From assembly GCF_001672915.1 (NCBI RefSeq), contig NZ_LZKR01000044.1:1-38228 (forward strand): a stretch of 38,228 nucleotides of DNA, written 5' to 3'. The position numbers were made by a program, and so were the translations under genes. This document shows positions 1 to 11,278 of the stretch, one piece after another. Under the pieces are notes generated by a model. It was not told the origin of the DNA, searched no databases, and was given only the letters and a program-made list of their open reading frames with translations. Positions within the stretch are counted from its first letter, which is position 1. Each line of letters opens with the position of its first letter. This stretch comes from Mycobacterium sp. 1245805.9 (GTDB taxonomy: Bacteria; Actinomycetota; Actinomycetes; Mycobacteriales; Mycobacteriaceae).

Positions 1-354
1 GCGACTGGCCCGACCGGGGCGACTGGTCCGACCGGAGCGACCGGCCCGACCGGAGCGACCGGAGCGACTGGCCCGACCGGGGCGACTGGTCCGACCGGAG
101 CGACCGGCCCGACCGGAGCGACCGGAGCGACTGGCCCGACGGGAGCGACTGGCCCGACGGGAGCGACTGGCCCGACCGGAGCGACTGGCCCGACCGGAGC
201 GACCGGCCCGACCGGAGCGACCGGCCCGACCGGAGCGACCGGCCCGACGGGAGCGACCGGCCCGACCGGCCCGACGGGAGCGACCGGCCCGACCGGAGCG
301 ACTGGCCCGACCGGCCCGACCGGGGCGACTGGCCCGACTGGCCCGACTGGACCG
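1..354 (+). repeat. Tandem 9/18-bp coding repeat (GAT/GPT triplets)
   Basis: A 9-bp unit of the type GGNGCGACN or GGCCCGACN recurs without interruption, mostly as alternating 18-bp pairs. All length changes are multiples of 9, so the reading frame and glycine phase are kept. The third base of each codon varies (ACC, ACT, ACG; GGA, GGC, GGG, GGT) while the protein pattern does not, which points to selection on the protein. Such arrays change length easily and often break assemblies. Confidence 0.9.
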
Positions 355-357
355 TAA
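1..357 (+). CDS. Collagen-like Gly-X-Thr repeat protein (5' end missing)
   Basis: The frame is open from the first base to a TAA at 355-357 and gives 118 residues. They form 38 consecutive complete Gly-X-Thr triplets in which X is only Ala or Pro, with Ala-Thr in front and Gly-Pro at the end. Glycine at every third position is the defining feature of a collagen triple helix, and GPT triplets are known from the Bacillus exosporium protein BclA, where Thr carries O-glycans. The chain stops inside the repeat with no C-terminal globular domain, so any trimerisation, signal or anchor domain must lie in the missing N-terminal part. Every Y position is Thr, so the protein offers a dense array of hydroxyl acceptors. 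Hydroxylase, glycosyltransferase and sulfotransferase-like genes follow directly. Function is inferred; the repeat is read directly. Confidence 0.85.
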   Translation, partial: ATGPTGATGPTGATGPTGATGATGPTGATGPTGATGPTGATGATGPTGATGPTGATGPTGATGPTGATGPTGATGPTGATGPTGATGPTGPTGATGPTGATGPTGPTGATGPTGPTGP

Positions 358-363
358 GCCGGA

Positions 364-392
364 GGAAGGGGTGGCCCAAGGTCACCCCTTCC
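364..392 (+). terminator. Hairpin terminator after the collagen-like gene
   Basis: A perfect 10-bp stem (364-373 with 383-392) extends inward by three more pairs, one of them G-U, to a CAA loop at 377-379. It starts 7 nt after the collagen-like stop codon. No T-run follows, which is usual for mycobacterial intrinsic terminators. Confidence 0.7.
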
Positions 393-8209: not shown

Positions 8210-8216
8210 CCAGCGA

Positions 8217-10040
8217 ATGGAGGTATGTGCAACGTCGCGGCCAACGGACCTTGCGCAGTTCGTGCGGGTTTACCCAGGTGCTATCGACGACGCGCTTGCG
8301 GCAGACCTGATCGCGCTACCGGGTGCCCAGAAGCTGGATCTTGGCCACCGGCGCTGTTCGCTTACGCCTGTCGTTGGTGACGTCTTGGAACGCTTCCGCA
8401 GTGTTATTCGCGAATGCCTGGCGGATTACCGCTCCATCTCGACAACGCTCTACTTTTGCACGCGGCTCGAGCAGCCCAATGTCCTGCGATACGAACCGTC
8501 GACTCCCGATCGACCGGAGTGGTTCCACGAGCATGCCGATGCCTGGAGTGCCGCGTCGGCGAGCCGGCAGGTAAGCGTGGTCGCGTATTTGAACGATGTC
8601 GCCGAGGGCGGCGAAACGGTTTTTCCCGCCCTCGATTACACACAGCGCTGTGAGAAGGGAAGCGTTCTTTTCTTCCCGTCGAATTATCTTTTCCATCATC
8701 TCGCTCGACCGCCGGAGTCTGGTCCGAAGATCGTGGTGGTGACGTGGATCCATTTCGGGGCGAACGACGGTGAGGCTTCGTACGTAACGATGCCGCTGGG
8801 CATGAAGCGTGATCGCGAGTTTTTGGTGGCCGAGGTCGAACGCGACCCCACGGATGTCAAGTCGGTCTTCGACTTGGCCCAAAGCTACTTTGATTCAGGC
8901 GATTTCGCCAACGCCCGCACGTGGTATGCGCGGCGGGCCGAGATGGGCGGCGCGGACGAGGAGGTCTACTGCTCGCTGAACCTGGTCGCACAGGCGATGG
9001 CGAATCTCGGGGCGCCGTGGCCTGAGGTGCAGGATGCGTTCTTGCGGGCGTGGGCGTTTCGGCCGTGTCGCGCCGAGCCGTTGCATCAGATCGCGGTGCA
9101 TTATCGGGTCGAGCAGCAGTACCAGTTGGGCTATCTGTTCGCCCAGCGGGCGGCTGCGATTCCGTTGCCCGGTGAGGACATCAGTGTCGATCGCGACGTC
9201 TATGCCTGGCGCGCGCTCGATGAGCAGGCGGTGTGCGCCTCGTGGATTGGTAAGCATGCCGAAGCGTTTGGGTTGTGCCGGCGGCTGTTGGCCAGCCCGG
9301 AGTTGCCCGAGGGGCGTCGACAGGGGGTTGCGGGCAATCGTGATGTGTCGGTTCCGGCGATGCTTGAGGCGGCGTCGTCGTATCCGGATGCGGTGGTGGG
9401 TGGCCTCGTTGGGAGTGCCCGTGACGGCGAGGTCACGGTGAGCGTGGTGGCCGGGTCGGATCGTGAAGTCACCGAGCAGACGTTGAACTCGTTTTTGCAT
9501 TGCTGCACGGATCTGTCGCGGGTGGGGCGTTTTGTGGTGGTCGGTGCGGGCCTGTCGGCGCAGGACCGGGCGTGGCTGCAGCAGCGTTACGGGTTTGTGG
9601 AGTTCGCCGATGCTGGCGTGGGTGAGGGTGCTGGGGTCCCGCTTGGGTTGGTGCGCAAGCAGGTTGGGTCGCGGTGGTGGCTGCATTTGGGTCAGGGGTG
9701 GCGGTTTTTCGCCCCGGAGGATTACCTCGGCCGGCTGATCGGGGTGCTGGAGGCTGAGCCGCGGGTGTTTCAGGTGGGCGTCAACTATGGCGATGCGGTC
9801 AAGCTCACCCATTCCTGTGCGGCCGAGAAACTGGCGCGCCGCGCGCCCGGTGCCGGTCGCTATGTGTTGGCCGATGCGGTGGCCAGCGGCCCGGCGATGT
9901 TCGACACCGCGCGATTGGACAAAGCCGGCGGGCTGAAAGACACCGACTCCGATCCCATCGCCCAACTCCGACAACGCTCAGCCACCGCCGGACTGAGCAC
10001 CGCCACCCTCGACGAAGTACTCTGCATCACCGCAATCTGA
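8217..10040 (+). CDS. Prolyl-4-hydroxylase-type Fe(II)/2-oxoglutarate oxygenase with shared C-terminal module
   Basis: Residues 1-187 of this 607-residue protein carry the hallmarks of the prolyl 4-hydroxylase alpha-subunit family: iron ligands His106 and Asp108 (HxD in EHADAW), distal His161, and Lys171 ten residues later, the usual spacing for the lysine that binds 2-oxoglutarate. The conserved core YLNDVAEGGETVFP lies at 124-137 and EKGSVLFF at 146-153. Such enzymes hydroxylate Pro in collagen-like chains, using O2 and 2-oxoglutarate. The HxD-to-distal-His distance (53 residues) is somewhat short but the set is complete. The TPR-like part starts near 198 and the final domain near 405. The collagen-like gene has Pro only in the X position of Gly-X-Y, whereas animal collagen P4H prefers Y, so the exact substrate is uncertain. 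Confidence 0.82.
   Translation: MEVCATSRPTDLAQFVRVYPGAIDDALAADLIALPGAQKLDLGHRRCSLTPVVGDVLERFRSVIRECLADYRSISTTLYFCTRLEQPNVLRYEPSTPDRPEWFHEHADAWSAASASRQVSVVAYLNDVAEGGETVFPALDYTQRCEKGSVLFFPSNYLFHHLARPPESGPKIVVVTWIHFGANDGEASYVTMPLGMKRDREFLVAEVERDPTDVKSVFDLAQSYFDSGDFANARTWYARRAEMGGADEEVYCSLNLVAQAMANLGAPWPEVQDAFLRAWAFRPCRAEPLHQIAVHYRVEQQYQLGYLFAQRAAAIPLPGEDISVDRDVYAWRALDEQAVCASWIGKHAEAFGLCRRLLASPELPEGRRQGVAGNRDVSVPAMLEAASSYPDAVVGGLVGSARDGEVTVSVVAGSDREVTEQTLNSFLHCCTDLSRVGRFVVVGAGLSAQDRAWLQQRYGFVEFADAGVGEGAGVPLGLVRKQVGSRWWLHLGQGWRFFAPEDYLGRLIGVLEAEPRVFQVGVNYGDAVKLTHSCAAEKLARRAPGAGRYVLADAVASGPAMFDTARLDKAGGLKDTDSDPIAQLRQRSATAGLSTATLDEVLCITAI
8991..10040 (+). repeat. Copy 2 of the near-identical 1,050-bp coding block
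   Basis: This is the partner of 3500-4549. It encodes the end of the TPR-like part and the whole final domain of the hydroxylase. In both copies the third codon positions are richer in T and G (many TTG, GTG, GTT) than in the homologous module of the second glycosyltransferase. Confidence 0.9.
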
Positions 10041-10054
10041 AGGGTCTAGCTCCG

Positions 10055-11278
10055 ATGAACGAGGATCTGAACACCGACGTCGTCTCGCGCGATTACCAGA
10101 CTTACCCAGAACCGATACACGACCTCGAGGCATGGACCGACAGCAATTGGGAGTGGTTCGACCCCGCCCACGCTCACTCGACTTTGTGGCCCGACCGCGA
10201 CTACAAGCCCGATCTCGACATTTTGATCGCGGGCGGCGGCACCAATCAGGCCGCGGTTTTCGCCTACACCAACCGTTCCGCGAAGGTGGTGGCGGTCGAT
10301 ACCAGCCAACCGTCGCTGGACCACCTGCAATATCTGAAAGACAAGTACGGGCTGTGGAACCTCGAATTGCATCGGGTCCCGATAGACGAGATGCCATCGC
10401 TTAAGCGCAACTTCGACCTGATCGTGTCGACCGGCGTCTTGCATCACCTACCCGACCCCGCGGCAGGCATGACGGCACTCAAGGGCTGTCTACGGCGCGA
10501 TGGCGTGCTGGGCGTGATGGTCTACGCGAAGTACGGCCAAATGGGCGTCGAAATGCTGCAATCAGCCTTCCGTGACTTGGACATGGGTCACGACGACGCA
10601 TCGGTCGAAATGGTCAAAGAAGTGATCACGGCGCTACCGACCGAACACCCCGTCCATAACTACTTCAAGATGGCACCGGTTTCCGCCCAATCCGATGCCG
10701 CCCTGGCGGATACGTTCCTGCGTGGTCCCGAACGCAATTACAGCGTCGATGAGTGCGTCGATCTCGTGACGTCAGCGGGTTTGGTATTTCAGGGATGGTT
10801 CATCAAGGCGCCGTACTACCCGCACGACTGGTTCAGACCCGGAGGTCCGCTCGATAAGGCGGTGAGCGCGTTGCCCGAGGCTAAGCTCTGGTCCGTCGTT
10901 GAGCGTCTCCACGTGATGAACGGCTCCCATTTGTTCATGGCGTGCCGTTCCGACCGGCCGAAGAAGAGCTACGAGATCAACTTCTCCACTCCCGAGTGCC
11001 TCGAGTACGTTCCGCGGATGCGGATGCGCTGCGGAATCGAGGGGAACGAAATTTTTCGGCCGAATTGGCGCATGCAGGCCACGCCGGCTCAGATGCGTTT
11101 CCTGCAGCACGTCAACGGCAAGCGCACGATACGTCAGATCGCCGATCGGGTCGCCAAGAGCGGGGAGTCGCCCGGCGCGAGTGCGGATGACCTGGAGGAG
11201 TTCGGTCGCAGACTGTTCGAAGCGTTGTGGCGCCTCGACTTCGCCGCGATGACGCTGAGGGAGAGCCCGCTCGCATAA
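10055..11278 (+). CDS. Class I SAM-dependent methyltransferase
   Basis: The 407-residue product starts 14 nt after the hydroxylase stop behind an AGGG ribosome site, so the two are probably co-transcribed. The Rossmann-like methyltransferase core shows motif I ILIAGGGTNQ at 56-65, the acidic residue after strand 2 in VVAVDTSQ (Asp82) and DLIVSTGVLHHLPDP from 121. The last 100 residues (MRFLQHVNGKRTIRQIADRVA) resemble a small winged-helix or PqqD-like add-on seen in other peptide-modifying enzymes; that comparison is weak. It lacks the C-terminal module shared by the four upstream proteins. It may methylate a sugar hydroxyl or the protein; the target is unknown. It is not a small-RNA or DNA methylase by motif. 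Confidence 0.75.
   Translation: MNEDLNTDVVSRDYQTYPEPIHDLEAWTDSNWEWFDPAHAHSTLWPDRDYKPDLDILIAGGGTNQAAVFAYTNRSAKVVAVDTSQPSLDHLQYLKDKYGLWNLELHRVPIDEMPSLKRNFDLIVSTGVLHHLPDPAAGMTALKGCLRRDGVLGVMVYAKYGQMGVEMLQSAFRDLDMGHDDASVEMVKEVITALPTEHPVHNYFKMAPVSAQSDAALADTFLRGPERNYSVDECVDLVTSAGLVFQGWFIKAPYYPHDWFRPGGPLDKAVSALPEAKLWSVVERLHVMNGSHLFMACRSDRPKKSYEINFSTPECLEYVPRMRMRCGIEGNEIFRPNWRMQATPAQMRFLQHVNGKRTIRQIADRVAKSGESPGASADDLEEFGRRLFEALWRLDFAAMTLRESPLA

What the first reader, a model, noticed from the sequence alone, without database searches (positions are those of the whole stretch)
1..11278. A possible collagen-glycoprotein modification island in a mycobacterium
A Gly-X-Thr collagen-like gene is followed by two GT2 glycosyltransferases, a sulfotransferase-like protein, a prolyl-4-hydroxylase-type oxygenase and a methyltransferase. 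Seen: the repeat, the catalytic motifs and the shared tail. Known: prolyl hydroxylases act on collagen-like chains, and GPT-rich bacterial collagens carry O-glycans on Thr. Inferred: the five enzymes together decorate the collagen-like protein or its glycan. I know of no mycobacterial system of this description.
Basis: partly seen in the sequence, partly recalled or inferred. Interest (0 to 1): 0.92.

Follow-up and report, generated by a model that had tools for sequence, protein, structure and literature searches.

The report
Shared-tail enzyme kit for PE_PGRS collagen
In a mycobacterium, four enzymes with different catalytic heads but one common tail sit beside a gene that likely encodes a PE_PGRS-type surface protein ending in a long collagen-like Gly-X-Thr tail, and they would dock on that protein and decorate it with sugars and probably hydroxyl and sulfate groups, a kind of modification our paper searches did not find described for mycobacteria.

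Summary
The one other contig end of this genome with the same Gly-X-Thr repeat encodes a PE domain, a GRPLI motif and a PGRS domain, so the collagen stretch is most likely the C-terminal tail of a PE_PGRS protein (at least 186 triplets, Thr at Y in 183). In 11 of 11 other genomes with this PE gene, a GT2-A-tail gene follows on the same strand. The PE_PGRS proteins there end in a short Gly-X-Y tail (typically ...GAQGAQGAHGATG), which this species has apparently expanded.

The tail shared by GT2-A, the sulfotransferase-like, GT2-B and prolyl-hydroxylase-type proteins is a TPR solenoid plus a GT-A-fold domain without DXD; seven recognisable kinds of head carry it. GT2-A plus TPR folds like SunS/ThuS and has the domain order of C. 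difficile SgtA, which puts GlcNAc on Thr of the GPT collagen BclA3.

Best reading: a cytosolic, docking-tail modification kit for a PE_PGRS surface protein. Against: 34 of 54 GT2-A-tail genes have no Gly-rich neighbour within 3 kb, the sulfotransferase call is weak, and no biochemistry exists.

The parts
1..357 (+). 3' end of a collagen-like frame (38 Gly-X-Thr triplets, then GP and stop); likely the C-terminus of the PE_PGRS protein whose 5' part is on contig C29 (L009:3-2552, minus)
   Evidence: Pfam Collagen 4.3e-19; triplet counts; C29 frame PE + PGRS + Collagen; join inferred, no exact overlap
696..2645 (+). GT2-A: SunS/SgtA-like GT-A head (DADD) with shared tail; predicted protein O-glycosyltransferase
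1257..2471 (+). shared tail, copy 1 (TPR + GT-A-fold domain without DXD)
2642..4549 (+). sulfotransferase-like head with shared tail; start overlaps the GT2-A stop by 4 nt
   Evidence: PF13469 0.047 (window) and 7e-5, 1.4e-5 (homologues), all below cut-off; fold search mixed
3335..4546 (+). shared tail, copy 2
   Evidence: 1018 of 1020 nt identical to copy 4 at the 3' end
5642..8086 (+). GT2-B head (PF00535, DDD) with shared tail; predicted glycan-extending enzyme
   Evidence: PF00535 1.3e-19
6884..8083 (+). shared tail, copy 3
8217..10040 (+). prolyl-4-hydroxylase-type 2OG-Fe(II) oxygenase head (H106, D108, H160 or H161, K171) with shared tail
   Evidence: PF13640 2.8e-9; prolyl hydroxylase chains in the PDB at 2.7e-7 to 2.9e-7; motif positions
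8823..10037 (+). shared tail, copy 4
10055..11278 (+). SAM methyltransferase (no tail), likely in one transcript with the P4H gene
   Evidence: PF08241 3e-11; homologues at 63-84% in 6 of 74 named tail loci

Best explanation
The locus likely encodes a PE_PGRS surface protein with a long Gly-X-Thr collagen-like tail, together with enzymes whose shared tail is predicted to dock on that protein so that their different heads can modify it before export. Proposed course, with each step marked. (1) Shown: PE, GRPLI and PGRS regions precede Gly-X-Thr repeats on C29, and such a repeat ends on C44; that the two are one gene is inferred. (2) Inferred: type VII (ESX-5) export, as for other PE_PGRS proteins. 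(3) Inferred: GT2-A, a SunS/SgtA-like GT-A + TPR enzyme, puts the first sugar on Thr of Gly-X-Thr in the cytosol. (4) Inferred: GT2-B extends the glycan, the sulfotransferase-like head sulfates it, and the methyltransferase methylates glycan or chain. (5) Inferred: the P4H-type head hydroxylates Pro of Gly-Pro-Thr. (6) Inferred: the tail (TPR + GT-A-fold domain without DXD) is a common substrate-docking module that has been moved between heads; the ancestral target would be the short C-terminal GAQGAQGAHGATG-type tail of the orthologous PE_PGRS proteins.
Against: No exact overlap joins C29 and C44. 34 of 54 GT2-A-tail genes have no Gly-rich gene within 3 kb. Pfam collagen hits occur in genomes without a tail match, e.g. 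G223, G322, G347, and G347 has a free-standing P4H and a Gly-X-Y frame but no tail match. Pro sits at X, whereas Y is the favoured site of the one bacterial P4H reported on (PMC8968730, passages). The sulfotransferase call is under Pfam's cut-off. A carboxypeptidase gene on the other strand splits the island. Two P4H tails (P0008, P0011) and the window's GT2-A tail do not join the homogenised clade. Polyketide synthases lie near some tail genes. No biochemical or expression data.
Confidence: 0.58

Rival explanations
1. The enzymes build or decorate a cell-surface glycolipid or polysaccharide (glycosyl-, sulfo- and methyltransferases, as in mycobacterial glycolipid clusters), and the PE_PGRS gene is only a neighbour or helps to display the product.
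For: GT, sulfotransferase and methyltransferase sets are typical of glycolipid loci (recalled). A polyketide synthase lies in this window (29901-38051) and its homologue lies at a partial tail gene in M. bohemicum L160; a PKS-like frame (named by eye) follows a GT-B-tail gene in L161.
Against: A prolyl-hydroxylase-type head does not fit; GT2-A folds like peptide glycosyltransferases; the PE orthologue and a GT2-A-tail gene are adjacent in 11 of 11 other genomes.
Confidence: 0.18
2. The tail is a second catalytic glycosyltransferase rather than a docking module, so each protein is bifunctional and the heads share only a sugar-adding step.
Against: No DXD at the expected site in 52 of 52 rows; the conserved LHLGQGW-type sequence replaces it. 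DXD-free GT-A enzymes exist (recalled), so this does not exclude it.
Confidence: 0.1
3. No functional link: PE_PGRS and Gly-rich genes are common in these genomes, and the tail enzymes are next to one by chance or by hitchhiking on a shared island.
For: 34 of 54 GT2-A-tail genes lack a Gly-rich neighbour within 3 kb; relatedness of the genomes inflates the co-occurrence.
Against: 11 of 11 same-strand adjacency of one PE orthologue; a Gly-rich gene within 3 kb of 20 of 54 against 1 of 18 random regions of the same genomes (Fisher p 0.015).
Confidence: 0.1

Closest known systems
Clostridioides difficile SgtA / BclA3 (PMC7157674)
   Same: GT-A domain followed by TPRs; gene next to a collagen-like protein with GPT repeats; Thr as acceptor (here predicted).
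   Different: Here the substrate would be a PE_PGRS protein, an extra GT-A-fold domain follows the TPRs, and other catalytic heads carry the same tail. SgtA's sequence was not compared here.
SunS/ThuS peptide S-glycosyltransferases
   Different: Far below the NCBIfam SunS cut-off (33.9 against 350 bits); acceptor here predicted to be Thr of a surface protein.
Caulobacter FlmG flagellin glycosyltransferase (PMC7591256)
   Same: A TPR domain on the enzyme binds the protein substrate in the cytosol.
   Different: FlmG has an N-terminal TPR and a GT-B domain; here one tail serves unrelated heads.
Bacillus anthracis prolyl 4-hydroxylase and BclA (PMC8968730)
   Same: A bacterial P4H and a collagen-like glycoprotein in one organism; PDB P4H chains match the head at about 3e-7 (species recalled).
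   Different: Here the P4H is fused to the same tail as the glycosyltransferases and lies in their island.
PE_PGRS proteins
   Same: PE, GRPLI and PGRS regions are present in the C29 frame.
   Different: The C-terminal module is a collagen-like Gly-X-Thr array; the three PE_PGRS papers searched for the word hold no occurrence of 'collagen'.
Mimivirus collagen hydroxylation and glycosylation (as mentioned in PMC8968730)
   Same: A virus that hydroxylates and glycosylates its own collagen.
   Different: Not compared in sequence. A giant-virus GT2 (Harvfovirus) matches most of the GT2-A + tail model (TMq 0.80).

Membership tests
PE_PGRS | PE domain at the N-terminus | tested here: met
   PF00934 9.4e-28 in the C29 frame
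PE_PGRS | GRPLI motif and PGRS domain after the linker | tested here: met
   GRPLIG at residue 127, PF21526 6.9e-18
PE_PGRS | ESX-5-dependent export to the surface | not testable with these tools
   A YxxxE string (YVGAE) is in the PE region; that this is the type VII signal is recalled
PE_PGRS | The window's collagen frame belongs to this gene | tested here: inconclusive
   Synteny and matching repeats support it; no exact contig overlap
Collagen-like proteins | Long uninterrupted Gly-X-Y run | tested here: met
   148 + 38 triplets; PF01391
Collagen-like proteins | Triple helix | not testable with these tools
   No experiment
SgtA-type collagen glycosyltransferase | GT-A head followed by TPRs, gene next to the collagen-like gene | tested here: met
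   Model; 338 nt from the collagen stop to GT2-A
SgtA-type collagen glycosyltransferase | Adds GlcNAc to Thr | not testable with these tools
   Needs an assay
SunS family (TIGR04195) | Score over the curated cut-off | tested here: not met
   33.9 bits against 350
Prolyl-4-hydroxylase-type 2OG-Fe(II) oxygenase | HxD...H Fe ligands and a Lys 10 residues after the distal His | tested here: met
   H106, D108, H161, K171; the same motifs in 10 of 10 proteins examined, P0009 being the window's own
Prolyl-4-hydroxylase-type 2OG-Fe(II) oxygenase | Similarity to solved prolyl 4-hydroxylases | tested here: met
   5iax, 3itq, 5hv0 at 2.7e-7 to 2.9e-7 over residues 88-181
Prolyl-4-hydroxylase-type 2OG-Fe(II) oxygenase | Hydroxylates prolyl residues of the substrate | not testable with these tools
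   Pro is at X in the repeat; the B. anthracis enzyme acts on X and Y, favouring Y (PMC8968730, passages)
Sulfotransferase family (PF13469) | Score over the curated cut-off | tested here: not met
   14.4 (window), 23.6 and 25.9 bits (homologues) against 27
Sulfotransferase family (PF13469) | Sulfotransferase fold with a PAPS P-loop | tested here: inconclusive
   Model pLDDT 77.6. Foldseek lists sulfotransferases (E 3.2e-5, TMq 0.57), but a complex I subunit ranks first and kinases are interspersed

The most novel reading that the evidence does not exclude
Mycobacteria run a cytosolic, plug-in modification line for PE_PGRS surface proteins: one substrate-docking tail (TPR + pseudo-glycosyltransferase) is combined with interchangeable heads (several GT2 types, GT-B-like, sulfotransferase-like, prolyl-hydroxylase-type), and in this species it makes a hydroxylated, glycosylated and sulfated collagen exported by type VII secretion.
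Probability: 0.38. Interest if true: 0.93.

Novelty: new variant of a known kind. Interest (0 to 1): 0.82.

Why it matters
The mycobacterial protein glycosylation that our paper search listed was mostly O-mannosylation by the Pmt mannosyltransferase (listing and abstract starts), and the three PE_PGRS papers searched for the word hold no 'glycosyl'. If the reading is right, a subset of PE_PGRS proteins has dedicated cytosolic modifying enzymes, and their variable C-termini are the acceptor. A tail shared by unrelated catalytic heads would be a readable sign of which enzymes act on one protein, and a source of enzymes for making modified bacterial collagen. GT2-A with a GATG peptide makes the question directly testable.

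Tried and rejected
Collagen Pfam hits as a co-occurrence marker: rejected, because PF01391 rings in 295 of 396 genus genomes, in part on PGRS-type and antisense frames (the window's own list has an antisense hit). Exact contig overlap of C29 and C44: none of 15 nt or more; the longest shared string was 47 nt. P4H elsewhere: in the 396-genome sample only G347 is close (70%); four others are 30-39%; 297 relatives added none. M. intermedium DSM 44049 gave no P4H match, although a partial protein named from that species exists (P0007). No genome of M. conspicuum was reached, so the neighbours of P4H-tail genes elsewhere were not seen. PE search at E <= 1e-40: nothing; repeated at 1e-20: 15 PE_PGRS proteins at 49-59% identity, none an orthologue by this measure; both scored only the roughly 8000 candidates sharing most words. 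The methyltransferase C-terminus looked to me like a PqqD-type peptide-binding domain; Pfam found nothing up to E 10. Paper searches for a described system showed none; PMC5733104 mentions unique 'collagen-like' and PE-PGRS genes in M. tuberculosis strains as separate genes (passages).
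Full report
OBSERVATION. The window is contig C44 of an unnamed mycobacterial genome (G000, 6.1 Mb, 228 contigs). The collagen frame at 1-357, the two GT2 proteins, the sulfotransferase-like protein, the P4H-type oxygenase and the methyltransferase are all there. The shared tail of about 400 aa occurs four times in the window, and no other match was found in the genome.

THE MISSING 5' END. A Pfam Collagen search of the genome (16 matches) rings on the Gly-X-Thr frames at two contig ends, C44:1 and C29:1 (minus strand). 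The other three matches are a 32-residue one on C34, a weaker one at C29:15757, and an antisense one in C44. The C29 frame, 850 aa to the contig end, is PE (9.4e-28) + PGRS (6.9e-18) + Collagen (5.3e-26), with GRPLIG at residue 127 and the repeat from residue 406. Triplets: 148 on C29 (GAT 71, GPT 59, GST 14, GPI 3, GTT 1) and 38 on C44 (GPT 20, GAT 18); Thr is at Y in 183 of 186. No exact overlap joins the ends, so the join is inferred. Synteny supports it: C29 genes upstream of the PE lie upstream of a PE + GT2-A pair in M. terramassiliense, two M. interjectum records, UM_CSW and E796.

THE PAIR IN OTHER SPECIES. The tail was found in 73 of 396 genus genomes (at most four candidates per genome were scored). 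The PE domain of C29 has matches at E <= 1e-38 in 12 of the 396, then a gap to 8e-33 (at most ten candidates per genome were scored, and the E <= 1e-30 list had 17 genomes, five of them below the gap). All 12 have the tail. In the 11 other than G000 the PE domain ends 1184-2253 nt before a tail on the same strand, and each of these 11 tails carries a GT2-A head. The hypergeometric chance for 11 of 11 with 72 of 395 is 3.8e-9, without correction for relatedness. Twelve loci were given to a script for the C-termini of the adjacent Gly-rich frames. Ten gave a row: all ten end in GATG and nine hold GAQGAQ; the tenth, L106, ends GATGPIGGATG. Of the two without a row, L095 is the place shown as L091 and ends GAQGAQGAQGAQGAHGATG; the run in L100 contains GAQGAQ. 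Four of the 15 PE_PGRS proteins were read in full and end in other sequence. The long collagen tail of the window's species therefore looks like an expansion of a short conserved Gly-X-Y tail; that is inference.

THE TAIL FAMILY. A named scan gave 74 loci (the best 80 of 90 kept), none of them titled as M. tuberculosis complex or M. leprae; the scan is pattern-based, so this is weak evidence of absence. A search of 95 sources gave 118 distinct tail frames in 84 of them; 106 had a head of 100 aa or more: GT2-A 72; GT-B-like 23 (weak PF13524); sulfotransferase-like 3 (window, Mycobacterium sp. SM1, a Kiruna MAG); an unassigned head 3; and one each of P4H, GT2-B, GT2-C (M. gordonae), GT2-D and an apparent out-of-frame GT2-A. 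Twenty unnamed regions overlap some named loci; identical proteins were counted once. Some frames have C-terminal additions, including methyltransferase domains (L087, L097) or further GT2 domains (L116). A protein search found 11 P4H-head proteins, one being the window's own; named ones are from M. conspicuum, Mycobacterium sp. 050134 and M. intermedium. Of 10 examined, the tail motif was found in 8; the exceptions were a 383-aa partial and P0003, whose sequence departs from the others late in the tail.

In a tree of 78 tails the window's ST, GT2-B and P4H tails form a clade (100/99) that groups with five other P4H tails (99/92); two further P4H tails (P0008, P0011) fall elsewhere, and the window's GT2-A tail groups with PE-linked GT2-A tails. 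GT2-A and unassigned-head tails of E3198 (L116) also pair (100/100). ST and P4H genes agree in 1018 of their last 1020 nt. Tails thus seem to move or be homogenised between heads within a genome, though not in all cases. The only other close P4H in the genus sample (G347, 70%) is free-standing; the tail was not found in that genome.

RESULTS AGAINST. A Gly-rich gene lies within 3 kb of 20 of 54 GT2-A-tail genes in the named loci, against 1 of 18 random 20-kb regions (6 of 108 positions; Fisher p 0.015, not corrected for relatedness). So 34 of 54 lack one; some of these contigs are cut short, others sit among housekeeping genes. For the GT-B-like heads it was 6 of 14, for the two other ST heads 0 of 2. 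Pfam collagen hits also occur where no tail was found, and G347's is a real Gly-X-Y frame. Polyketide synthases near some tail genes keep a glycolipid role open. The S11 gene splits the island into two plus-strand blocks.

PRECEDENTS. PMC7157674 (abstract, passages, section 21): SgtA, GT-A then TPR, next to bclA3, adds beta-O-GlcNAc to Thr of GPT repeats. PMC7591256 (abstract, outline, passages): the TPR domain of FlmG binds the flagellins. PMC8968730 (passages; it cites Schnicker and Dey 2016, which I did not see): the B. anthracis P4H hydroxylates X and Y prolines, favouring Y. PMC9436101 and PMC11939664 (passages): PE_PGRS organisation and ESX-5. PMC6405829 (passages): SunS-type enzymes act on a Gly-flanked Cys. 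PMC13243192 and PMC5733104 (passages): no such system in what I saw. PMC7550000: only a term search, with no occurrence of glycosyl, collagen, hydroxyl or post-translational.

VERDICT. The finding is real and goes further than described: most likely a PE_PGRS-collagen with a docking-tail enzyme kit. That GT2-A works like SgtA on BclA3 is fairly well supported; that all the enzymes act on one protein is inference.

Noticed in passing
L155:930-4547 (CAMCTY010000043.1, labelled Bifidobacterium breve MAG): GT2-A and a divergent tail (37%) fused to GT10 and GT25 domains; GT25 is the family of collagen galactosyltransferases (recalled). A 4.8-kb contig, perhaps misbinned.
   Followed up: no
L077/L078 (G157:C1:3736000-3766000) and L079 (G334:C637): Very long Gly-Ala-Gln/Gly-Ala-Thr collagen-like frames within a few kb of a GT2-A gene with only about half the tail.
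   Followed up: partly
L118:3030-11209 (Mycobacterium sp. SM1): A sulfotransferase-tail gene next to PE-, PPE- and WXG100-like genes (named by eye), which hints at a link with type VII secretion.
   Followed up: no
L161:7205-11185 (Mycobacterium sp. 1245111.1): A GT-B-tail gene beside a Gly-rich protein ending GPTGPTGPNGPTGPSG.
   Followed up: no
L190 and L191 (G347): A free-standing P4H (193 aa, 70% to the window's head) and, on another contig, a Gly-X-Y collagen-like frame with a C-terminal repeat domain.
   Followed up: partly
window 29901-38051 and L160: A type I polyketide synthase whose M. bohemicum homologue lies at a partial tail gene.
   Followed up: partly
model m93d1e8067850 (window 696-2471): A Harvfovirus GT2 protein matches most of the GT2-A + tail model (TMq 0.80, 26% identity).
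   Followed up: no
L117:2-1384 and L136:7585-9180: PPE-like genes (by eye) divergent from a GT2-A-tail gene in two Mycolicibacter-type loci.
   Followed up: no
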